A stretch of DNA of 64,000 bases from DASRDR01 sp963812945 [NCBI: uncultured Candidatus Rokubacteria bacterium] (GTDB lineage Bacteria > Methylomirabilota > Methylomirabilia > Rokubacteriales), in assembly GCA_963812945.1 (NCBI GenBank), contig CAWEXD010000008.1, forward strand, positions 2,170,001 through 2,234,000. The letters are read 5' to 3'. Position numbers and translations under genes: made by a program. Positions 9,021 through 59,390 of this stretch are shown here, piece by piece. The notes under the pieces were generated by a model. That model was given only the letters and a program-made list of their open reading frames with translations. It had not been told where the DNA came from and ran no database searches. Position 1 is the stretch's first letter. Every line of letters starts with the position of its first letter.

Positions 9021-10271
9021 TCATCCGCCGTACTCCATGATGTGGAGGCCGGCGTTGTAGTCCGTCACGTACACGATCCCGTCCGCGTCGACGAAGACGT
9101 CGGCCGCCTGGATCACACGCGCCCGGCCGGGCCGGTGATCGACGAGGCGGGCCGGGGTCGCGGGCACCAGGGCGCCGACCTCGACCGGGCGGTACCGATC
9201 GCGGATGTCGAAGACGCGCACCCCCGCGTTCTGGTAGGTCGCGAAGACGAGGTCGGAGCTGACGAAGCTCCCCGGCCGGTTCTCGTGGAGATTGTGGGGC
9301 CCGAAGTGCCCGCCCGTCCCGACATAGTCGGCCTCGTCGGGGGTCGGGCAGGTCGCGATGCTCACCGGGTTCGTGGGCTCGCGAATGTCGAAGAGCCAGA
9401 CGAGCTTGAGCCCGTCCTCCTGGTGGTCGAGCACCGCCTCGTCCAGGACGACCAGGAGGTCGCGGTCCGGCAGCGGCAGGCAATTGTGCGTGCCGCCCCC
9501 GAACGGCGGCGACCAGTTGCGATGGACGACCAGACGGGGCGCGCTCCGGTCGGCCACGTCGATCACGACGAGGCCGGCATCGCGCCAGGCGCCATACGCC
9601 GTGTCTCCGTCGACAATCGCGTGGTGCAAGCCGTTCCGCCGGCTGGCGGGCCAGGCCGGCTCCTCGCCGGCCGCCAGGTGCATCCCGGGAAGCCAGAACC
9701 GGCCCGCCGGCCGGGGCTCTCTCGGATCGGCCATGTCGATCGTCAGGAGGACGTAGTCGCTGAACCCGTCGAGCAGGACGGACGCGTAGGCCCATCGTCC
9801 GCCGACGTACCAGAGCCGGTGAATGCCCCCGCCCTCCACCGGCATGAACCCGATGCGACGCGGCGTCCCCGGCTGGGCGATGTCGAACACGGCGAGCCCG
9901 GCCGTCCAGTCGCGCGCCCGCCCTCTCGCGCCCTCGGCGGTGCCCACGGTCTTGCCGATCGAGCCCGAGTAGTAGGCGCGCTCGTCGGCGAAGGCGAGGT
10001 CGGCGAACATGTCCTTCGCGTTGATCACCAGCAGGAGGTCGTCGTGCGTCTGAAGGTGGATGTTCCAGGTCCCCGGCGGCGCGGCCTCGTAGTGGACGGG
10101 CCGGGGCCGTTTGGGGTCCCGGACGTCGACGACCGAAAAGCCCTTGGAGAACATGTGCCCGACGTAGGCATGACCGCGGTGCACCATGACCTGCACGCCG
10201 TCGGGACGGCCGCCCTGGTCGGAGTGGCCGATGAGACGCATGTTGCGCGCGTGGTCGGGCGTGGGGAGCAT
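9021..10271 (-). CDS. LVIVD-repeat (beta-propeller-like) protein
   Basis: 416 residues without an evident signal peptide. It contains repeated blades with the pattern V-x-V-x-D-I/V-R/A-D-P: FSVVDVRDPKRP, LAVFDIAQPGTP, LLTIDMADPREP, LVVIDVADRSAP, WLFDIREPTNP and VRVFDIRDRYRP. This is the LVIVD repeat family, which folds as a propeller and whose biochemical roles are largely undefined. The start ATG (10271) is 3 bases behind the monooxygenase stop codon, so the two are almost certainly co-translated. Several HxH and DH elements (HFGPHNLHEN, LDHQED) could bind metal. Function in the operon is unknown; a scaffold or enzyme partner of the monooxygenase is conceivable. Confidence 0.85.
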   Translation of the reverse strand: MLPTPDHARNMRLIGHSDQGGRPDGVQVMVHRGHAYVGHMFSKGFSVVDVRDPKRPRPVHYEAAPPGTWNIHLQTHDDLLLVINAKDMFADLAFADERAYYSGSIGKTVGTAEGARGRARDWTAGLAVFDIAQPGTPRRIGFMPVEGGGIHRLWYVGGRWAYASVLLDGFSDYVLLTIDMADPREPRPAGRFWLPGMHLAAGEEPAWPASRRNGLHHAIVDGDTAYGAWRDAGLVVIDVADRSAPRLVVHRNWSPPFGGGTHNCLPLPDRDLLVVLDEAVLDHQEDGLKLVWLFDIREPTNPVSIATCPTPDEADYVGTGGHFGPHNLHENRPGSFVSSDLVFATYQNAGVRVFDIRDRYRPVEVGALVPATPARLVDHRPGRARVIQAADVFVDADGIVYVTDYNAGLHIMEYGG

Positions 10272-10274
10272 GGC

Positions 10275-11510
10275 TCAGGCGGCGAGGAAGTGGGGCACGG
10301 CGATGTGCCGCAGCATGGCGTGCCCGTCCTGCAGGAGCCGCCACATCGCCCGCTCCTCGTCCGTCCGGAGGTTCACCCCGAGATGAGCGCCGAGCTTCCG
10401 CCCGTGCAGCATCACGCGCTCGCCGATCGGCTGCCGCACGGCGTTGAACCGGGCGAGGCCGCCGTCGACGTCGGCGTCGGGCGCCGCGAGCGCGTCGGCG
10501 AGGGCTCGCGCGTCCTCCGCCGCCTTCGAGACCCCGAAGCCCATGTGCGGTCGGCCGACGGAGGCGGCGTCGCCGATCAGCACCACCCGGCCGAAGACCA
10601 TCCTGGGGGACGCGTGATCGTAGATCGGCGTGAAGAACGGCCGCTCGATCCGCCGCAGCACGTCGAGGAACGGGGGCGGCATCACCGCCTCCGCATCCCG
10701 CCGCATGGCTGCGATGACCTCGTCGCGGATGAGCGGCGGGGGAATCGAGAACTCGTGGTGCCGGCCCTCCGCGTCGGAGCACATCTCCCGCAGGCCGGCG
10801 TCGTCGACAACGCGATACCAGATGAAGTTGTAGCGCCGGCTGCCCGGCCGCATCTCGTTGTTGAGTCCCGCGATCGGATAGCCGATGACCTGCTGGCGCG
10901 GCGGCAGGAAGAACGTGAAGTACGGGAAGATCGATCGCAGCGTGTCCGGGGACAGAGCGCCCTCGTCGGGCGCGCCGCGCCAGACGAGATAGCCGGCGTA
11001 GATCGGCTGCACCTCGGGCGCCACCTGCGCGCGCACGCTCGAGCGAAACCCGTCGGCGCCGATCAGGAGGTCAGCGCGCTCCTCGTGTCCGTCGGCAAAC
11101 CGCACCGTGACGTGGTCACGGTCCGGCTCGGCACTCGCGAAGGCCCGCCCGAGATGGTAGTGCGCGTCGGGGAGGAGCCCGCGCAGCATGCGCTGGAGCC
11201 GGTCCCAGGACGTGAGGATCTGGCGCAGGGGCCGTTCCCCGATCGTGCGTCCCCGGGCGTCGATCAGGATGCGCTTCTCGACCTCGACGCCGAGCTCGCG
11301 CGTCCCGGCGCCGCTCAGCTCGAGGGCCTCGAGCAGCTCCGGATGCGCGGTGATCCCCGCCCCCCGTCCCACCAGCTCCACGGAGGAGCGCTCGTAGACG
11401 TCGGCGTCCCACCCGACTCGGCGGAGGAGCGCGGCCGTGAACAGCCCGGACATCGACCCGCCGATCACGACGGCGCGCCGTCGGGCCCGTCGAAGGCCGT
11501 GTGGGCTCAT
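10275..11510 (-). CDS. FAD-dependent aromatic-ring monooxygenase (PHBH-like, class A)
   Basis: 411 residues. N-terminal FAD-binding dinucleotide motif AVVIGGSMSGLFTAALLRR, middle GD-like motif LLIGADGFRSSVR, and C-terminal FAD ribose motif VLIGDAASVGRPHMGFG. These three define the single-component flavoprotein hydroxylases. The RPHMGFG variant and overall layout resemble dihydroxypyridine/salicylate-type hydroxylases. The likely substrate is an aromatic or heteroaromatic acid imported by the neighbouring NitT/TauT-type transporter, but this is inference. It lies 56 bp behind the binding-protein gene and 3 bp before the LVIVD gene. Confidence 0.9.
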   Translation of the reverse strand: MSPHGLRRARRRAVVIGGSMSGLFTAALLRRVGWDADVYERSSVELVGRGAGITAHPELLEALELSGAGTRELGVEVEKRILIDARGRTIGERPLRQILTSWDRLQRMLRGLLPDAHYHLGRAFASAEPDRDHVTVRFADGHEERADLLIGADGFRSSVRAQVAPEVQPIYAGYLVWRGAPDEGALSPDTLRSIFPYFTFFLPPRQQVIGYPIAGLNNEMRPGSRRYNFIWYRVVDDAGLREMCSDAEGRHHEFSIPPPLIRDEVIAAMRRDAEAVMPPPFLDVLRRIERPFFTPIYDHASPRMVFGRVVLIGDAASVGRPHMGFGVSKAAEDARALADALAAPDADVDGGLARFNAVRQPIGERVMLHGRKLGAHLGVNLRTDEERAMWRLLQDGHAMLRHIAVPHFLAA

Positions 11511-11565
11511 CGAGACTCGGGCAGCGCCGTCACCCCGTTCACCGCGGGCGCGCCGGGCGGCCGGG

Positions 11566-12579
11566 TCAGGAGGCGGGCTTGAGATCCGTGAAGAACTGCG
11601 GGTGGCTCTTCATCACCTTGTCGATGAAGCGCAGCTCGAGCCCCTTCGACTGCGGCACCGGCGCCCGGAGCTTCTTCTGCTCGAGGAGGATCTGGACGTT
11701 CTCGTCCCAGGCCGCCAGGGTGTGCGGCGTGATCCGCGCGTCGAAGACCATCTGACCCAGCGCCTTCTTGGCGACCGCGGCGTCCAGCCCGGGGATCCAG
11801 CGCGTCGAGATCTCGGCCGCCTCGTCGGGATTCTTCCGCGTGTACCAGGTCGCCTCGGCGACGCCGATCACGTAGCGCTCGACGAGGTCCGGGCTCTTCT
11901 CGATCACGTCGTCGCGGACGGCCATGTTGATGAAGTAGCCGATGTGGCCGCCGCCGCGGCTCAGGAGCACCGCATCCGGAACCTTGGCCTCGATCTGCGA
12001 GCCGAACGGCTCCCAGCACGCGACCGCGTCGACGCTGCCGCCCTGGAGCGCCGACAGGATGTTGCCCGGGGGCACGTTGAGCACTTGCACCTTCTCGTAC
12101 GGCACCCCCTTCTTCTTCAGCACCACGCCGAGGTACTCGTCCGCCGTCCCGCCGACCGGGGTGCCGAGCTTCCGGCCCGCGAGGTCCTCGATCTTCGTGA
12201 TCCCGGTGCCCTTGCGCGTCCAGATCGTGACCGACTGGTCCCAGTACCGCCCGCTCCGGTCACCCATGAGCCCGACCACGCCCCGGGCGGCCATCCCCCG
12301 CTCGACGGCGAGCGGGTAGTTGGAGTACGCCGAGCCGATGATCTGGACCTCGCCCGCCTGGAGCGCCTTCGCCATCTCCTGCCCGGTGCCGAGCACCTTG
12401 AGCTTCAGGTCGACCCCGTGCTTGAGGAAGATCCCCTTCTCGACGCCGACGAAGCTCGGCACGTGGTTCATGTTGTTGCCCACGGCGGCGGTCAGCACGG
12501 CCGGCTCCTGGGCGGTCGGCGCGCCGGCGAGCATGAACACCGCCACGATTGCGAGGACCAGGCTCGAGAGCTTCTTCAT
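11566..12579 (-). CDS. ABC transporter substrate-binding protein, NitT/TauT (SsuA) family
   Basis: 337 residues from ATG 12579, preceded by a good ribosome-binding site (GGAGAGGGGG). Residues 1-23 are a signal peptide ending around AGAPTAQE. The mature part has NMNHVPSFVGVEKGIFLKHG, the hallmark start of NMT1/SsuA-like binding proteins, and GKLGTPVGGTADEYL-like strand motifs in the second lobe. It delivers ligand to the permease pair at 6655-8189. Family ligands include nitrate, taurine, sulfonates, pyrimidine precursors and phthalate-type aromatics; the flavin monooxygenase next to it makes an aromatic acid plausible. Confidence 0.93.
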   Translation of the reverse strand: MKKLSSLVLAIVAVFMLAGAPTAQEPAVLTAAVGNNMNHVPSFVGVEKGIFLKHGVDLKLKVLGTGQEMAKALQAGEVQIIGSAYSNYPLAVERGMAARGVVGLMGDRSGRYWDQSVTIWTRKGTGITKIEDLAGRKLGTPVGGTADEYLGVVLKKKGVPYEKVQVLNVPPGNILSALQGGSVDAVACWEPFGSQIEAKVPDAVLLSRGGGHIGYFINMAVRDDVIEKSPDLVERYVIGVAEATWYTRKNPDEAAEISTRWIPGLDAAVAKKALGQMVFDARITPHTLAAWDENVQILLEQKKLRAPVPQSKGLELRFIDKVMKSHPQFFTDLKPAS

Positions 12580-51836: not shown

Positions 51837-52520
51837 TCACCCTTCTTGAGGGCGCTCCGTCCGCGCGTCGCGCATCGCCTGGATCTGCGGGGCGAGAACC
51901 TGCTCGTAGCACTGTGGACAGATGCTGTGGCTGAACTGGGCATCCGAGTGGGCGCTCACGTACTCCTCGACCCGCTGCCAGTAGTTCTGGTCGTCTCGAA
52001 TCTTCTTGCAGTACGCGCAGATGGGGAGGAGCCCGTGAAGCTGCTTGACTCGGCCCAGAGCCGACTCGAGCTCCTGAACTCGCTCGGCGAGCCTCCGGCG
52101 CAGGTCCACCACCCGCATCGCCACGATCAGCCGCGCGCGCAGCTCATCGTGGTCGAAGGGCTTTCCGATGTAGTCGTCGGCCCCCGCCTCCAGGCCCGCG
52201 ACGACCTCCGCGCGCCGCGTGTTGGCCGTCAGCAGGATCAGGTAGGGCGGGGTGGGGTTTCCCCGTGCCCGGACTCGGCGGCAGATCTCGAGGCCGTCGA
52301 GCCGAGGCATCATCCAGTCGAGGATGGCGACGGACGGGGCATCGGGCCGCTGGAGCGCCCCCCACGCCTCGTCGCCGTCGGCGGTGACCATGACCTCGTG
52401 GCCCCACCGCCGGAGGGTGGCCTCCAGGAGTCGGCGCGAGGCCGGATCGTCCTCAGCGATGAGGACGGGAAGAGGCGATGCCGGGGTGGCGGCTCCGATC
52501 GTCGGGTCAGGCGTCGTCAT
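51837..52520 (-). CDS. Receiver-domain protein with a C-terminal CxxC/CxxC zinc-binding-like module
   Basis: 227 residues from ATG 52520 (behind GAGGGG). CheY-like receiver at 17-135 with Asp24/25, phospho-Asp68 (AILDWMMP) and Lys120 (GKPF). A coiled helix (138-163) leads to [25 protein letters not shown] and [13 protein letters not shown]: cysteines 168, 171, 201 and 204 in two CxxC pairs with a nearby His. This short tail is seen at the end of various sensors and regulators; its role is unclear, probably metal binding. Divergent from the giant kinase at 52688, its likely partner. Confidence 0.9.
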
Positions 52521-52687
52521 GGCGCCCCTCCTGGGCTCACCCGATGCTACCCCCGGCTCGACCGGGGTGTCACGGTTTCGCTGTAACCGCGCATTGCATG
52601 AGGGCTTCTGCCGACACTCCAACACGCCCGGCGCGAGATTGCCGGAGGCTTCGCCGGCGAAGGGCAGTAGACTTTCACCGAGGTCCC

Positions 52688-55600
52688 GTGTTCCAGCGCC
52701 TGAGCCTCCGAACGATCCTCATCGGCGGCGCGATCCTGGCCGCCGCAGTGCCGGCCGTACTGGTCGGGCTCGCGCTCGTTGGGTCCATCCGGGACTCGGT
52801 GATCCGGGAAGCGACGGCCCGATACGAGCTCATCGCCAAGGGCCTCGCCTCGGAGTACGGCCAGTTCCTCAGCTCCCACCGGCAGGCCGTTCGGACCCTG
52901 GCGGACCACGTCCAAGAGTACCGGACCTTCGGCGAGCGTAGCGTGGCCCCGCTCCTCGCGCGAACCCGGGCGAGCTACCCCGCCCTGCTGGCGATCGCCA
53001 TCGTCGAGCCGTCCGGCCAGATCGTCGTGTCGGACCCCCCGACCACCGAAGACGGCCGCAGCACGGCCGGCATCGACGTCGGCGATCGGGAGTGGTTCCG
53101 GGGGGTCGTCCGCAGCCGCCGGCCCGTCGTGGACTCCGACGTGGTATCCAACCGCGTTCGGCAGGGCCGCGCGATCACGATCAGCGCGCCCATCCTGGAC
53201 GGCTATGGTGAGCTCCGCGGCGTGATCACCGCCGGCCTCGATCTGGCGGCCATTCAGGTCTTCGCCGACCGCGTCCGCGTCGGCCAGACGGGCTACGCCG
53301 AGGCCGCAACGGCGCGGGGCACGATCCTCGCAGGCCCGAGCCGGGAGCACGTCCGGGAGGGCCAGGATCTGTCGGGGTTCCAGATCTGGGGGCTGGTCGC
53401 CCACGCGGACTCGGGGCAGATCCCGCGCTATACGGGCACCCGCGGCGAGCAGCGGCTGGCGGGGTTCGCGACCGTGCCCGACGTCGGATGGAAGATCTGG
53501 GTGACCCAGGCCCACGCCGAGGTGCAGGCCGAGCTGAACGCGACCTACCGCCGGGTGCTGGGCTGGACGTTGCTCACCCTCCTGGCGACCGTGGCGCTGG
53601 CCGTGATGGTGGCCACTCACGTGTCCCGTCCCGTCAAGGCTCTCCGCGACACGGCCAGCGCCATTACCGGGGGCGACACGACGCGCCAGATCCCTCAGGG
53701 CGGCCCGCGCGAGATCGCGGAGCTCGCCGGCGCCTTCGACGAGATGATCCGCCGGCTGACCACGGCCCAGGGCGCGCTCGAGGCGCGGCTCGGCGAGACG
53801 GCGGCTCTGCTGGCCATCGCCCGGGTGATCGGCGGGACCCTGGATCTGCCCGAGGCCATGCGCCGGATCTGCCGGGAGCTTGCCCGTCTGACGGGCGCCG
53901 GGACGGTGTCGGCCCACCTGGTCGACGCCGAGCGCACCGAGCTGAGGCCGATCGCCGCCTACCACGTGCCCAAGGAGCTTCTCGGCGTGGTCGCCGCGAG
54001 CCCCGTTCCGCTCGCCGAGCAAGGGTTTCGGGAGACCGTTTTCGAGGAAGGCCGCGTCGTCTGGAGCGACGACGTCGCCCGGGATTCCCGCTTCACGTTC
54101 CCCCTGTTCCGCGCGTTTCCCCACCAGTCCGGCCTGATCATGCCGCTGGTCCTGGACGGTGACGTCATGGGCACGCTCTACCTCGTGTGGTGGGAAGAGC
54201 GCCGCCGGTTCGAGGACGCCGAGCTGGCCGTCCTCCAGACCGTGGGGAGGCAGACCGGGACACTCCTGCGCAGCGTCCGGCTCCACGAGGCCACGGAGCG
54301 CCAGGCCCGCCAGGCCACGAGGCTCTACGAGATCGCGGGCCAGCTCGCGTCGACGCTCGACGTCGATCGGGTCCTGGATCGGGTGACGCAGACCATCGTC
54401 GATCTCCTGGAGTGCGACGCCTCCGGCATCTACGCGTACGACGAGGGACGGGGCGGGTTGGTGATGCGGCGCGGACTGAACCTCGATCCCGAGCTGACGC
54501 GGGACCTCGTGCTCAGACCGGGGGAGGGTGTCGTGGGTCGCGCGTTCGCCGAGCGTCGCCCCGTGTGGACGCGCGACCGCGAGACCGATCCGGCGCTCGA
54601 GTACGATCCCGCGATGGCGGACCTCGTCCGCACGAAGGCGCCGCGGGCCTACCTCGCGGTGCCCGTCGCCAGCGGAGACGTGCTTCACGGCGTGCTCATC
54701 TGCCACTACCTCATGCCCCACACCTTCACGTCCACCGAGGTGGAGCTCTTCTCCATCCTCGCCGCGCATGCTGCCATCGCCCTCGAGCGCTCCCGGCTCT
54801 TCCAGGTGTCGGAGGAACGGCGCCGCGACCTGGCGGCCCTGGTCACCGTCACCCAGCGCGTTACCCGTGGCCTGGACTTGCCCGCCGTCCTCGGAGGCAT
54901 CGCCGAGGCCGCCGCGGAGCTGTTCCACGGCGAGGCCGGATTCCGGCTCATCGCCGGGGAGTTCCTCGTCCGCGTGGCCGTGACGCCCGGCGCGTCGGAG
55001 GCCATGGCCAGCGAGCGGATCCGGGTGGGTGAGTCGATCAGCGGTCGGGTCGCCGCCACGGGCGAGCCGATCGTGAGCGCGGACAGCGCCGGCGACCCCC
55101 GGCTCCTTCCCCAGCATCGGACGGGGAGGCGGCGCGATCGAACCGGCGCCCAGATGTCCGTGCCGATCAGTGTGGGCTCCCGCATTCTCGGCACTCTCAA
55201 CGTCTTTCGCGAGCGGGGGCATCGATTCGACGAGAATGCGATCGCGCTCGCCATGAACCTGGCCGGGCAGGCGGGCGTCGCCATCGAGAATGCCCGGCTC
55301 TACGCGGACGCCGAGCGGCGGCGGCGAGCCGCCGAGAGCCTCGCCGAGGTCGGCGGGGTGATCTCGCAGTCGCTCGACCCGCAAGAAGTCGCGGAACGGA
55401 TCGCGGCCAGCGTCCGCGGTCTGTTCGATGCCTCGCTGGCGTCGCTGTTTCGCGTCGACGTCGCTTCGGGAGATCTCGTGACACTCGCCGTCTCCGGCGG
55501 CGCGGGGCCCGTCTGGCGAGCCGGAACCATCCTGGCACGCGGGACCAGCGTGGCGGGGCTCGCCGTGAGCGACCGTCGAGCGGTGACGACGGACGACGTC

Positions 55601-57886
55601 CTCACCGACAAGCGGGTCACGCTGACCCCCGAGGTGCGAGAGGCCCTGGAGGCAACCGACCTCCGGGTCGTCCTCGCCGTCCCCATCCTCTACCGGGACC
55701 AGGCGATCGGCGCCCTCTCCTTCACGCGGCCGAAGGGGCAGACCTTTCAGGGGGACGAGGTCCGGCTCGCGCAGGTGTTCGCTGACCAGGCGGCCCTCGC
55801 CCTCGAGAACGCACGGACGGCAGAGGAGCTCCGCGCCGCCACCAAGGCGGCCGAGACGGCCAGCCGCGCGAAGAGCGATTTCCTCGCGAACATGAGCCAC
55901 GAGATCCGGACGCCCATGAACGGCATCATCGGGATGACCGAGCTCCTGCTCGACACCGAGCTCGGACCCGAGCAACACGAGTACCTCCGGATGGTCAAGA
56001 CGTCCGCCGACGCGCTGCTCGAGCTCATCGACGACATCCTGGACTTCTCCAAGGTCGAGGCGGGGAAGCTCACCCTGGACTCGGTGGACTTCTCCCTTCG
56101 CTCCACACTGGCCCACGCGCTGAAGCCTCTGGCTCTCCGCGCCCACCAGAAGGGCCTGGAGCTCGCCGTCGACGTGCCCTGGGACGCTCCCGATGCGCTG
56201 ATCGGAGACCCGGGACGCCTGCGGCAGATCATCCTGAACCTGGTGGGGAACGCCCTGAAGTTCACCGAACAGGGCTCGGTGATCGTGCGCGTCACCACCG
56301 AGACGGAGATGCCCGACGCCGCGCGCCTGCATTTCACGGTCACTGACACGGGGATCGGGATCCCGCCGGAGAAGCAGGCGCTCGTCTTCGAGGCCTTCGA
56401 GCAGGCCGACACCTCGACGACCCGCCGCTACGGAGGCACGGGGCTGGGGCTGGCCATCACCAGGCGCCTGGTGGAAATGATGTCGGGCCGGGTCTGGGTC
56501 GAGAGCGTGGTCGGCCAAGGCAGCACGTTCCACTTCACCGCGCGCTTCGGTCTCGGCCACCCCGCGACCGCCCCGATCGCGCGGCCGCTCGAGCAGCTCC
56601 GGGGCGCACCGGCCCTGGTCGTCGACGACTACGAGATCAATCGGCGCCTCGTCCTCGACATGCTCACGCGCTGGGGGTTCGGGGCGACGGCGGTGAGCCG
56701 CGCGGACGCTGCGCTGGCGGCGATCCGAGACGCTCGCGCCGCCGGCAAGCCGTTCGCGCTGGTGCTGACCGACTCGGAGATGCCGGGTATGGACGGCTTC
56801 ACGCTCTGCGAGCGGATCAAGGCCGATCCCGCCAACGCCGGGACCACGCTGGTCATGCTCTCGTCCGCCGGCCGGCCGGGCGACGCGGCGCGGTGCCGCG
56901 CGATCGGCATCGCGGGTTACCTCGCGAAGCCGATCGCGCAGGGGGAGCTCCTCGACACGATCCTGACCGCCATCGGGGCGCCCCCCAAGCCTGGCGGGCC
57001 GTCCGCCCTCGTGACCCGGCACGTGCTCCGCGAGCGCCGCCACCGTCTCCGGATCCTCCTGGCCGAGGACAATGTCGTGAACCAGCAGCTGGCCGTGCGG
57101 CTGGTGGAGCGGCAAGGGCATGCCTCGGTCGTGGCCAGGACTGGCCACGAGGTCCTGGAGGCCCTGCAGCGCGAGCGCTTCGATCTGGTGCTGATGGACG
57201 TGCAGATGCCCGGCATGGACGGGCTCGAGGCCACGACGGCGATCCGCGATCTCGAGGCCCGGGCGGCATCGGGTCGCTGGACCCCGGCGATCGGCTCGTC
57301 CTTCGCCGGCGGGGGACGCATCCCCGTCGTCGCCGTGACGGCGCACGCGATGAAGGGCGACGAGGCACGCTGTCTCGACGCCGGCATGGACGGCTACCTC
57401 ACGAAGCCGATCCGGCCAGCCGAGCTGGCGTCGGCGATCGAGCGCTGGCTTCCGTGGGATACCTTGCCCGTCCCGCCAGCTCCGCCGCCCCCGCCCTCAC
57501 CGAGCCTCGACGAGACTCCAACCTCCCCGAAGTTCTCCCCACCCCCGGTCGACCTCGAGGCCGCCCGGCGTCTGGCGGCCGGTGACGAGGAGCTCCGGGC
57601 AGAGGTCGCCGCGATCTTCGTCGAGAGCTGCCGGCAACACCGGGCAGATCTACGAAGCGCGCTCCAGGCGGCGGACTCGGTGCGGATCGGGCAGATCGCG
57701 CACGCGCTGAATGGCGCCTCGGGAACGGTCGCGGCGGTGAGAGCGCAGACGCTGGCGGCAGAGCTGGAAGCGCTCAGCCGCGAAGGCTACCAGGACCGCC
57801 TGATCACGCTGGTCGCCGAGCTGGAGCGAGAGCTCGGGCGCGCCGCCGAGTTCCTGGCGAGCCAGAGCTCCGTGGAATCCGCCTGA
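52688..57886 (+). CDS. Giant hybrid histidine kinase (cache-HAMP-4xGAF-HK-2xREC-HPt)
   Basis: 1732 residues from a GTG at 52688 preceded by GAGG; the frame is open further upstream but without a signal. Order: helix 8-31; periplasmic dCACHE about 32-290; helix about 290-312; HAMP; four GAF-like modules (about 372-528, 545-705, 720-868, 880-1048); HisKA with [14 protein letters not shown]; HATPase with [20 protein letters not shown]; receiver 1 ([11 protein letters not shown], about 1308-1428); receiver 2 ([11 protein letters not shown], about 1455-1592); proline-rich linker; HPt with the phospho-histidine in AHALNGASG. BarA/EvgS-type phosphorelay in one chain. Likely final targets are the two stand-alone receivers on either side. 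Confidence 0.95.
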
Positions 57887-57910: not shown

Positions 57911-58288
57911 CTAGAACGGCCCGCCGATCGCCTCCCGCACCGCCTCCAGCAGGCTCGTGGTCTCCACCGGCTTCTTGAGAATCCGGAGCGCCCCTGCCTC
58001 GGATGCCCGCCGCTCCAGCACCGTGTCGCCACTGCCGGTCAGGACGAGGATGGGAATCGCGCTCGTCTTGGACGACATGGCGAGCCGCTCCAACACGCTC
58101 ACGCCTCCGCCGGCCGGCATCAGCAGATCCGTGAGGATGAGCGCCGGCTGGTCCCGGTGTGCGTGGATCACCGCTTGCCCCGCATCGCGGGCGATGATCG
58201 TCGTGTAGCCGGCCTTCTGGAGGACACGGCTGCAGAGGACCGCCGTTGCGGAATCGTCGTCCACAACCAGGACGCGCTTGCCCGACAT
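57911..58288 (-). CDS. Stand-alone response-regulator receiver
   Basis: 125 residues, receiver only: acidic cluster VVDDDSA, phospho-Asp in LILTDLLMPAGGG, Thr in ILVLTGSG and Lys in LKKPVE. No output domain. The gene converges on the giant kinase (24 bp between stops), so it may be a phosphate sink or a diffusible messenger of that HPt module. 188 bp to the divergent selenoprotein gene. Confidence 0.93.
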   Translation of the reverse strand: MSGKRVLVVDDDSATAVLCSRVLQKAGYTTIIARDAGQAVIHAHRDQPALILTDLLMPAGGGVSVLERLAMSSKTSAIPILVLTGSGDTVLERRASEAGALRILKKPVETTSLLEAVREAIGGPF

Positions 58289-58476
58289 CCTCGCTGAGCC
58301 CCATCACGCCGTGGAATCGTCTCGACCGCATGATCGAATCGTCCGTGCCCCAGTGTCAAGGGACCGGACGCCGCCCCCGGAAGCGAAACACGCTCCGAGG
58401 GCATCAAAACGGTGATGGTGCCTGGAGTCCGCCTCTCCGACACTGCCCTCATCCTGCTGCCAAGGAGGCCGAGTCG

Positions 58477-58722
58477 ATGACGGAGCGGTCGGTCACGGTC
58501 TACAGCTCGCCCAGCTGACGCCCCTGCAAGCTGACGAAAGAGTTTCTTTCGTCCAAGGGGGTCGAGTACCGGGAAGTGAACGTCGCCGAGGATCTCGACG
58601 GGCGGGAGGAGCTGCTTCGGCTCACCGGACAAATGGCGGTACCGGTGACGGTCATCGACGGCGAAGCCGTCCTTGGCTTCAACCGGCCACGGCTCGTCCA
58701 GCTACTCGGTCTCGACGCCTAG
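58477..58722 (+). CDS. Selenocysteine-containing glutaredoxin (in-frame TGA at the first redox residue)
   Basis: An 81-residue product if the TGA at 58516-58518 is read as selenocysteine. The start ATG (58477) has a perfect AAGGAGG 8 bases upstream. N-terminus MTERSVTVYSSPS, then TGA, then RPCKLTKEFLSSKG, where Cys-homologous glutaredoxins have SxPxCxxC; so the TGA is exactly the first (nucleophilic) cysteine, giving UxxC (U14, C17). The frame stays open for 67 more codons with full glutaredoxin features: VEYREVNVAED, cis-proline in MAVPVTVIDG, and GFNRPRLVQLLGL, ending at TAG 58720-58722. A SECIS-like hairpin follows the TGA. The role would be dithiol/selenol reduction in the cytoplasm. Pseudogene or sequencing error are the alternatives, but the hairpin and the intact downstream frame argue against both. 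Confidence 0.9.
58517..58563 (+). promoter_or_regulatory. bSECIS-like stem-loop behind the selenocysteine TGA
   Basis: Upper stem: GACGAAAG (58533-58540) pairs perfectly with CTTTCGTC (58546-58553) around a five-base loop AGTTT. Lower stem: GAC and CCCCT (58517-58525, one bulged G) pair with AGGGGGTC (58556-58563), with an asymmetric internal loop of 7 and 2 bases that includes an unpaired U directly below the upper stem. The loop G (58542) is 24 bases after the TGA. These distances fit the bacterial SECIS rule (apical-loop G about 16-37 nt downstream). SelB is expected to bind it. Confidence 0.85.
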
Positions 58723-58868: not shown

Positions 58869-59069
58869 CTAGTCGTCCCGCCGCTGGGCGCGCCGCTCGG
58901 CCTTCCGTCGTTTCCTGCGGGCTTCCGCCCGCTTGCGCTTCCGCTTCACCGATGGCTTCTCGTAGAAGGCGCGGCGCTTCATTTCCTTGAACAGGCCGTC
59001 CGTCGCCATGGCCTTCTTGAGCGCCTTCAGTGCCGGCTCGATCTGATTGTCCAGGACCTCGATTCTCAA
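58869..59069 (-). CDS. rpsU: 30S ribosomal protein S21
   Basis: 66 residues. The start is a TTG at 59069 (IEVLDNQ follows), with an AGGAAAGGGGGG ribosome-binding sequence in front; longer readings extend into GC-rich upstream sequence without homology. QIEPALKALKKAMATDGLFKEMKRRAFYEKPSVKRKRKRAEARRKRRK is classical bS21, including the basic C-terminal tail. S21 binds near the 3' end of 16S rRNA. It converges with the selenoprotein gene. A minus-strand -10-like TAGAAT at 59195-59200 could be its promoter. Confidence 0.95.
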   Translation of the reverse strand: MRIEVLDNQIEPALKALKKAMATDGLFKEMKRRAFYEKPSVKRKRKRAEARRKRRKAERRAQRRDD

Positions 59070-59390
59070 TGGCCCCCCCCTTTCCTGGCGGTCTCTATCC
59101 GAGAACTCGTCGACGACAGGTCCGATCGCCGCCAGCGCCCGGATCGCCATCTTCCGCGGGATCGCGAACCACGCGACCGCCCGCGGAGGATATCATTCTA
59201 CGGCCGCTGCGGCACGACTCCTTGACGCCCCCGGCTGGAGGGCTCGGCCCGCAACATCCCGGTGGGGGTGGGGGTCCCAGGGCCCGGCCGCCCGGGGTAC
59301 CCGAAGCGCCCGCCAGCCGGCGGGACATCCCGCCGGCCGGCGCCTATCCGCGCGGGACCAAAAGGGCTCGCCGCGCTTCCGCCGGGTCGT
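59070..59390. other. Gene-free stretch upstream of rpsU
   Basis: 321 bp between rpsU (start 59069) and the TPR gene (end 59391). No supportable ORF. It holds a GC-rich inverted repeat (listed separately), homopolymer-like G runs near 59262-59278 and a candidate rpsU -10 box. Confidence 0.55.
59316..59337. repeat. Perfect 10-bp inverted repeat
   Basis: GCCGGCGGGA, CA, TCCCGCCGGC. As RNA it forms a strong stem on either strand. It lies 54 bp beyond the TPR gene stop (minus direction) without a following U-tract; perhaps a Rho-independent-like pause or a stability element. Confidence 0.4.

What the first reader, a model, noticed from the sequence alone, without database searches (positions are those of the whole stretch)
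58477..58722. Hidden selenoprotein: a glutaredoxin with UxxC in place of CxxC
Seen: an ATG with a perfect Shine-Dalgarno, thirteen glutaredoxin codons, a TGA exactly where the nucleophilic cysteine belongs, then 67 more in-frame codons with all the remaining glutaredoxin features (second Cys, cis-Pro loop, C-terminal GF-N-R-x-x-L). Conventional gene callers stop at the TGA and would miss the gene. Known: selenocysteine replaces catalytic Cys in thiol oxidoreductases and glutaredoxin-like selenoproteins have been reported in bacterial selenoproteome surveys. Inference: this organism decodes UGA as selenocysteine and uses a high-reactivity monocysteine-selenol glutaredoxin.
Basis: partly seen in the sequence, partly recalled or inferred. 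Interest (0 to 1): 0.95.

Follow-up and report, generated by a model that had tools for sequence, protein, structure and literature searches.

The report
Selenocysteine glutaredoxin gene with SECIS hairpin
A small redox-protein gene contains an in-frame stop codon that almost certainly inserts selenocysteine at the active site, a known kind of protein that ordinary gene finders overlook.

Summary
At 58477-58722 (+) there is an 81-codon glutaredoxin frame interrupted only by TGA at the catalytic cysteine (58516-58518). (1) Of the 30 best relatives fetched from one large phylum, 15 have TGA at the same codon and 15 have Cys. (2) Right after the TGA lies a bacterial SECIS hairpin: 9 perfect pairs, GUU loop, 23 nt downstream. 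Its 15-nt core is identical in 7 of those 15 TGA relatives and one letter off in 7 more; it uses three codons rare in this 70% GC DNA. (3) A covariance model built from those relatives alone has this site as its top hit in the window (E 4e-7). (4) The 15 TGA relatives' genomes all carry SelB. TGA ends 21 of 34 genes I called, so recoding is local. Not tested: the window's own genome is not held, so its selA/B/C/D could not be sought, and its lineage is undetermined. UxxC glutaredoxin selenoproteins are an established, experimentally verified family: this is a new member of a known kind. One oddity: the motif is U-R-P-C where 24 of 26 aligned relatives have C/U-P-x-C.

The parts
58462..58468 (+). 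Shine-Dalgarno sequence AAGGAGG, 8 nt before the ATG
   Evidence: sequence, spacing computed
58477..58722 (+). glutaredoxin gene, 81 codons with Sec at codon 14, TAG stop included
   Evidence: translation, Pfam PF00462 64.8 bits, AlphaFold2 model (Cys given for Sec) pLDDT 93.8 and PDB glutaredoxin matches
58516..58518 (+). UGA codon read as selenocysteine (U14), position of the catalytic Cys in the motif U-R-P-C
   Evidence: aligned to TGA in 15 and to TGC/TGT in 35 of 50 relatives
58525..58527 (+). TGC, resolving Cys17 of the UxxC motif
   Evidence: invariant in the 27-row alignment
58533..58553 (+). bacterial SECIS upper stem-loop: 9 Watson-Crick pairs (58533-58541 with 58545-58553), apical loop GUU (58542-58544), 23 nt between the UGA and the loop
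   Evidence: folds, alignment with relatives, covariance model from relatives hits 58516-58563, E 4e-7
58536..58550 (+). 15-nt SECIS core GAAAGAGTTTCTTTC; identical in 7 of 15 TGA relatives, one letter off in 7 (read from the alignment); occurs once in the window
   Evidence: codons AAA, TTT, CTT rare in window genes

Best explanation
A bacterial selenoprotein gene of the UxxC glutaredoxin family. The ribosome starts at the ATG behind a strong Shine-Dalgarno sequence. At UGA codon 14 the hairpin just downstream (SECIS) recruits SelB with Sec-tRNA-Sec, and selenocysteine is inserted instead of termination. The 81-residue protein is a thioredoxin-fold oxidoreductase in which the Sec14 selenol is the nucleophile and Cys17 resolves the mixed selenenyl-sulfide. 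Shown here by computation: frame, homology across the TGA, TGA/Cys exchange at this exact codon in relatives, a SECIS shared with TGA relatives, and SelB in the genomes of the TGA relatives examined. Inferred: that this organism has SelA/B/C/D, that the codon is decoded as Sec in the cell, and the chemistry and partners of the protein.
For: Homology continuous across the TGA: Pfam E 8e-18. Best PDB sequence match 7c10, E 8.6e-16, titled 'Dithiol cGrx1'; PMC7642778 (passages) describes cGrx1 of Clostridium oremlandii as a native selenoprotein whose catalytic Sec was replaced by Cys for the work (that 7c10 is this protein I take from the shared name; '7c10' did not occur in that text). At codon 14, 15 of 50 fetched relatives have TGA and 35 TGC/TGT. 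Of the 150 rows printed (list cut there), by hand count 67 have one in-frame TGA, 1 a TAG, 2 a TAA, 80 none; the place of the TGA was checked for 15 of the 67. SECIS: 9 uninterrupted Watson-Crick pairs, G first in the loop, 23 nt from the UGA, -10.6 kcal/mol, inside the published limits (PMC13188914 section 5). An uninterrupted Watson-Crick stem this long arose in 0 of 20,000 synonymous recodings and behind 32 of 15,003 codons of called genes. The 55-nt stretch from the UGA folds better than all but 2 of 200 shuffles. Codons AAA, TTT, CTT in the stem have within-family frequencies 0.028, 0.057, 0.041 in window genes. Covariance model R1, built from the 15 TGA relatives without the window, hits 58516-58563 first of 5 rows, E 4e-7, UGA in register; next 0.1. 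SelB above cut-off in 15 of 15 TGA genomes against 6 of 15 genomes fetched for a Cys form (Fisher p 0.0007). TGA ends 21 of 34 genes that I called, so UGA is not reassigned throughout.
Against: The window's genome is not held, so Sec machinery was not tested; the window has no tRNA and no Rfam match. Hairpin energy alone is not unusual: 129 of 600 synonymous recodings and 393 of 600 gene positions do as well in the bSECIS scan; folds of 48 and 81 nt are matched by 12 and 17 of 200 shuffles. With G-U pairs allowed, 72 of 20,000 recodings and 389 of 15,003 gene positions reach nine pairs. R1 also scores Cys relatives: L049 49, L048 39.5, L033 24.7, L056 20.3, L037 19.4, L012 18.4 bits against 27 for the window, so part of its score is coding similarity or remnant SECIS. 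tRNA-Sec was found in 13 of 15 TGA genomes, not in G200 (the top match) or G326, against 7 of 15 Cys genomes (Fisher p 0.05). Two genomes in the Cys set (G415, G256) also have a second match with one TGA, so that set is not clean. L042 and L044, 2 of 15 TGA relatives, miss the -7.5 limit in my scan, and L032 lacks the shared core. No relative from the window's own lineage was obtained.
Confidence: 0.94

Rival explanations
1. A Cys-type glutaredoxin whose codon TGC or TGT was misread as TGA in assembly (sequencing error).
For: A single base separates TGA from TGC/TGT; 35 of 50 relatives have Cys codons there, and some Cys relatives keep a SECIS-like hairpin (L048, L049); reads are not available.
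Against: An error would not bring a SECIS hairpin at the right distance, made of codons rare in this DNA, with a core shared with TGA-containing relatives.
Confidence: 0.03
2. A pseudogene with a nonsense mutation, or a former selenoprotein in a lineage that has lost Sec decoding (decaying relic).
For: Sec machinery of this genome untested; only one copy seen.
Against: The other 80 codons are open, with the five invariant alignment positions kept; start and Shine-Dalgarno sequence are intact; the nine-pair stem has no mismatch.
Confidence: 0.025
3. TGA read as another amino acid (Cys or Trp) by a variant code, or by suppression.
For: The UGA falls on a Cys position.
Against: 21 of 34 called genes end in TGA; a SECIS hairpin points to Sec decoding; the TGA relatives' genomes examined carry SelB (15 of 15).
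Confidence: 0.005

Closest known systems
Sec-containing glutaredoxin (UxxC, PF00462), for example cGrx1 of Clostridium oremlandii (PDB 7c10 by its title)
   Same: Best PDB sequence match (E 8.6e-16); 47% identity and TM 0.87 to the model; native catalytic Sec in a U(or C)PXC motif (PMC7642778 passages); UxxC family listed as experimentally verified (PMC13188914 passages).
   Different: Motif U-R-P-C instead of U-P-x-C; DNA of 70.5% GC; host lineage not determined.
YruB-family glutaredoxin-like protein (TIGR02196)
   Same: Best NCBIfam score, 79 bits over residues 6-77.
   Different: Below the curated cut-off of 88.55 bits, with C given for U.
UXX-star selenoproteins (NF041212, NF041211, NF041114, NF047338)
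   Same: Glutaredoxin-like small selenoproteins; 25.2 to 52.7 bits.
   Different: All four below their cut-offs; here the second Cys is present (UxxC).
BC3987 thioredoxin-like protein (PDB 3zij, 3zit) and NrdH redoxins
   Same: 3zit is the top Foldseek match; NrdH 4fiw aligns at 38% identity.
   Different: 3zit has Cys at the position of the Sec (alignment); whether this protein takes electrons from glutathione or a thioredoxin reductase was not tested.

Membership tests
Sec-containing glutaredoxin (UxxC) | glutaredoxin domain PF00462 | tested here: met
   64.8 bits against cut-off 22.9; model pLDDT 93.8 matches glutaredoxins in the PDB
Sec-containing glutaredoxin (UxxC) | in-frame UGA aligned to the catalytic Cys, with Cys and UGA homologues | tested here: met
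   15 TGA and 35 Cys of 50 relatives at query position 14
Sec-containing glutaredoxin (UxxC) | second Cys of the UxxC motif | tested here: met
   C17, invariant in 27 rows
Sec-containing glutaredoxin (UxxC) | bSECIS: loop 3-9 nt, stem 4-16 bp, G in the first two loop positions, 16-37 nt from the UGA, MFE at or below -7.5 | tested here: met
   loop 3 nt, stem 9 bp, G first, 23 nt, -10.6 kcal/mol; limits from PMC13188914 section 5; the limits alone are lax here, 445 of 600 synonymous recodings also reach -7.5
Sec-containing glutaredoxin (UxxC) | selA, selB, selC, selD in the same genome | not testable with these tools
   no genome held for the window; the window has no tRNA
Sec-containing glutaredoxin (UxxC) | Sec detected in the protein | not testable with these tools
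   needs 75Se labelling or mass spectrometry
YruB-family glutaredoxin TIGR02196 | curated score cut-off | tested here: not met
   79 against 88.55 bits
UXX-star family NF041212 | curated score cut-off | tested here: not met
   52.7 against 66 bits
glutaredoxin 3 (TIGR02181) | curated score cut-off | tested here: not met
   40.5 against 90 bits; glutathione use itself not tested

The most novel reading that the evidence does not exclude
A selenol glutaredoxin with a thioredoxin-like dipeptide order (U-R-P-C), in a high-GC lineage (Rokubacteria-like by recall), carrying a SECIS whose 15-nt core is letter-identical to that of glutaredoxins in a distant phylum. If the two phyla do differ, the gene and its SECIS may have crossed phyla together, or SelB recognition may hold the sequence of this SECIS, and not only its shape, constant.
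Probability: 0.3. Interest if true: 0.4.

Novelty: new member of a known kind. Interest (0 to 1): 0.27.

Why it matters
It adds a well-supported UxxC glutaredoxin selenoprotein that gene callers stopping at TGA would miss, and implies that its host decodes selenocysteine. The review PMC13188914 (passage) reports a Methylomirabilota MAG with 63 predicted selenoproteins; if the window is from that phylum, which I suggest from recall only, this fits a selenium-rich lineage. The SECIS core shared with TGA relatives is a usable search handle for further members.

Tried and rejected
Hairpin energy as sole evidence: rejected, 129 of 600 synonymous recodings and 393 of 600 gene positions do as well in this GC-rich DNA; stem perfection, register, codon choice and sharing with relatives carry the case instead.

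Other UGA read-through genes in the window: a codon-score scan ranked 10275 (-) first, but the translation reads by eye as two adjacent genes (TGA GCC ATG), not a selenoprotein. I took ranks 36891 and 39302 (-) as neighbouring genes and 46568 (+) as a shadow frame from their contexts and did not test them. The scan ranked the glutaredoxin itself low, so it is insensitive to short N-termini, and it does not show that the window has no second selenoprotein gene.

Relatives: the single genome-contig scan gave three distant loci: L002 and L003 have Cys in the motif; L001 was not resolved (read out of frame). The viral-contig scan gave none. Plasmids gave 39 records, all under 60% identity, not examined further. 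Of 57 genomes of the class of G002, 52 had matches; the 20 loci fetched all have Cys.

Tree of 51 rows: unresolved near the window; the Sec/Cys label needs 8 changes, at least 4 forced by well-supported branches, so repeated exchange; direction not shown.

Taxonomy of the window: not determined. 70.5% GC and 4 ABC-transporter parts among 10 scanned proteins suggest Rokubacteria by recall only. Paper searches: Rokubacteria with selenocysteine (2 papers listed, neither opened), Methylomirabilota with selenoprotein (2 listed, PMC13188914 opened), Rokubacteriales with selenocysteine (0). None of what I saw reports this gene; the library lacks most subscription papers. The paper on the Sec glutaredoxin itself (Kim et al. 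2011) is not held, seen only as a reference.

Full report
What is there. Searches confirm the frame: AAGGAGG at 58462-58468, ATG at 58477, 13 codons, TGA at 58516-58518, 67 codons, TAG at 58720-58722. The translation is MTERSVTVYSSPSURPCKLTKEFLSSKGVEYREVNVAEDLDGREELLRLTGQMAVPVTVIDGEAVLGFNRPRLVQLLGLDA. It stands alone between a divergent response regulator (57911-58288, -) and a ribosomal protein S21 gene on the other strand (58869-59150, -).

Is it a glutaredoxin across the TGA? Yes. Pfam PF00462 matches residues 6-65 at 64.8 bits. NCBIfam puts YruB-type glutaredoxin first (79 bits, below its cut-off of 88.55) and the Uxx-star family second (52.7 bits, below its cut-off of 66). The best PDB sequence match is 7c10, titled 'Dithiol cGrx1'. 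In PMC7642778 (passages), cGrx1 of Clostridium oremlandii is described as a native selenoprotein with a U(or C)PXC motif. An AlphaFold2 model on 27 aligned sequences, with Cys given for Sec, has mean pLDDT 93.8; its best Foldseek match is 3zit, and 7c10_A (rank 6) aligns at TM 0.87 and 47% identity.

What stands at codon 14 elsewhere? In the phylum of G003 (genome of a record titled Dethiobacter sp., so Bacillota by recall), 178 of 398 genomes gave a match, and the top match has one TGA. Of the 150 printed rows (the list is cut there) I count by hand 67 with one TGA, 1 with TAG, 2 with TAA and 80 with no stop. For the 30 rows with fetched loci I read the codon: 15 are TGA exactly at query position 14, 15 are Cys codons. 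The 20 loci from the class of G002 are all Cys. In total 15 TGA and 35 Cys of 50.

The SECIS. Directly after the UGA the RNA folds into a stem of nine uninterrupted Watson-Crick pairs with loop GUU, 23 nt from the UGA. The published model asks for a 3-9 nt loop, 4-16 bp, a G in the first two loop positions, 16-37 nt spacing and at most -7.5 kcal/mol (PMC13188914 section 5); these are met (-10.6). Energy alone is weak evidence in this GC-rich DNA: 129 of 600 synonymous recodings and 393 of 600 gene positions reach it. A nine-pair uninterrupted Watson-Crick stem under the loop rule is rarer: 0 of 20,000 recodings and 32 of 15,003 gene positions; with G-U pairs allowed, 72 and 389. The stem is built from AAA, TTT and CTT, whose frequencies among their synonyms in window genes are 0.028, 0.057 and 0.041.

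The same hairpin in relatives. The window's core GAAAGAGTTTCTTTC (once in 64 kb) aligns without a gap to the TGA relatives: read from the alignment, 7 of 15 have it letter for letter (L035, L039, L040, L041, L042, L043, L050), 7 differ by one letter (L034, L044, L046, L047, L053, L060, L061), and L032 differs more, with a slightly shifted hairpin of other letters. On 16 rows, five of the nine pairs show a change on both sides, more than in any of 500 shuffles. But the structure was taken from the window, relatedness inflates such counts, two of those five pairs rest on the shifted L032 alone and two on the window alone, and pairs 18-38 and 20-36 are unpaired in 13 and 11 of 16 rows. A covariance model from the 15 TGA relatives only, window left out, finds window 58516-58563 as its best of 5 rows (27 bits, E 4e-7), the next at E 0.1. 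Against this: on 35 Cys loci the model gives 12 rows, among them L049 (49 bits), L048 (39.5), L033 (24.7), L056 (20.3), L037 (19.4) and L012 (18.4), so coding similarity contributes; L048 and L049 look like remnant SECIS behind a Cys codon. In my bSECIS scan 13 of 15 TGA and 4 of 35 Cys relatives pass -7.5, but the groups also differ in kinship and GC.

Decoding machinery. No genome is held for the window, and the window has no tRNA or Rfam match. In the genomes of the 30 best matches, SelB is above cut-off in 15 of 15 TGA and 6 of 15 Cys genomes (of the 14 control genomes 2 are above cut-off). tRNA-Sec is above cut-off in 13 of 15 and 7 of 15 (3 of 14 controls); the two misses, G200 and G326, do have SelB, and only 98 of their 519 and 192 candidates were scored. 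Fisher p 0.0007 and 0.05. Two of the Cys set, G415 and G256, have a second glutaredoxin match with one TGA. In the window TGA ends 21 of 34 genes that I called, so UGA is recoded locally.

Verdict. A UxxC glutaredoxin selenoprotein, decoded through a SECIS. Function by family: a thiol/selenol-disulfide oxidoreductase with Sec14 as nucleophile and Cys17 as resolving residue (inference from the family). The family is established: Grx UxxC is in the list of experimentally verified selenoproteins (PMC13188914, passages; also listed in PMC9312934, passages), and Sec/Cys exchange and remnant SECIS are described (PMC1794560, passages; its table passage gives a count of 3 for glutaredoxin). What differs here is U-R-P-C where 24 of 26 aligned relatives have Pro directly after the Cys/Sec and none has it one later, and a host that is probably not a clostridium (recall).

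Changes made on checking: 'another phylum' was weakened because the window's phylum is not known; the core identity is now given as 7 and 7 of 15; the two mixed genomes in the Cys set and the lax bSECIS limits are now told. Odds: the relic rival was lowered from 0.03 to 0.025 so that the explanations sum to one; the others are unchanged.

Noticed in passing
window 58516-58527: Active-site order U-R-P-C: Pro sits before the resolving Cys, as in thioredoxins (recalled), while 24 of 26 aligned relatives have Pro right after the Cys/Sec.
   Followed up: partly
L048:1645-1692 (-), L049:1651-1698 (-): Cys-type glutaredoxins that keep most of the SECIS-like core (39.5 and 49 bits with model R1): possibly recent Sec-to-Cys exchange with remnant hairpins.
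   Followed up: partly
genomes G200 and G326: TGA-type glutaredoxin and SelB present, but no tRNA-Sec reached the limit; only 98 candidates were scored in each, so it may be missed or in a gap.
   Followed up: no
G414:C14:50557-50793, G447:C29:29245-29478, G453:C31:5529-5753: Glutaredoxin matches with one in-frame TAG or TAA instead of TGA; position of the stop not checked.
   Followed up: no
window 9021-11609 (-): An apparent 861-codon frame through TGA at 10275 reads by eye as an FAD-monooxygenase-like gene followed at once by a second gene (TGA GCC ATG), not a selenoprotein.
   Followed up: partly
window 52478-57886 (+): Frame of up to 1802 codons that reads like a hybrid sensor kinase with GAF-like stretches and receiver domains (by eye), next to single response regulators at 51837-52625 and 57911-58288 (Pfam).
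   Followed up: no
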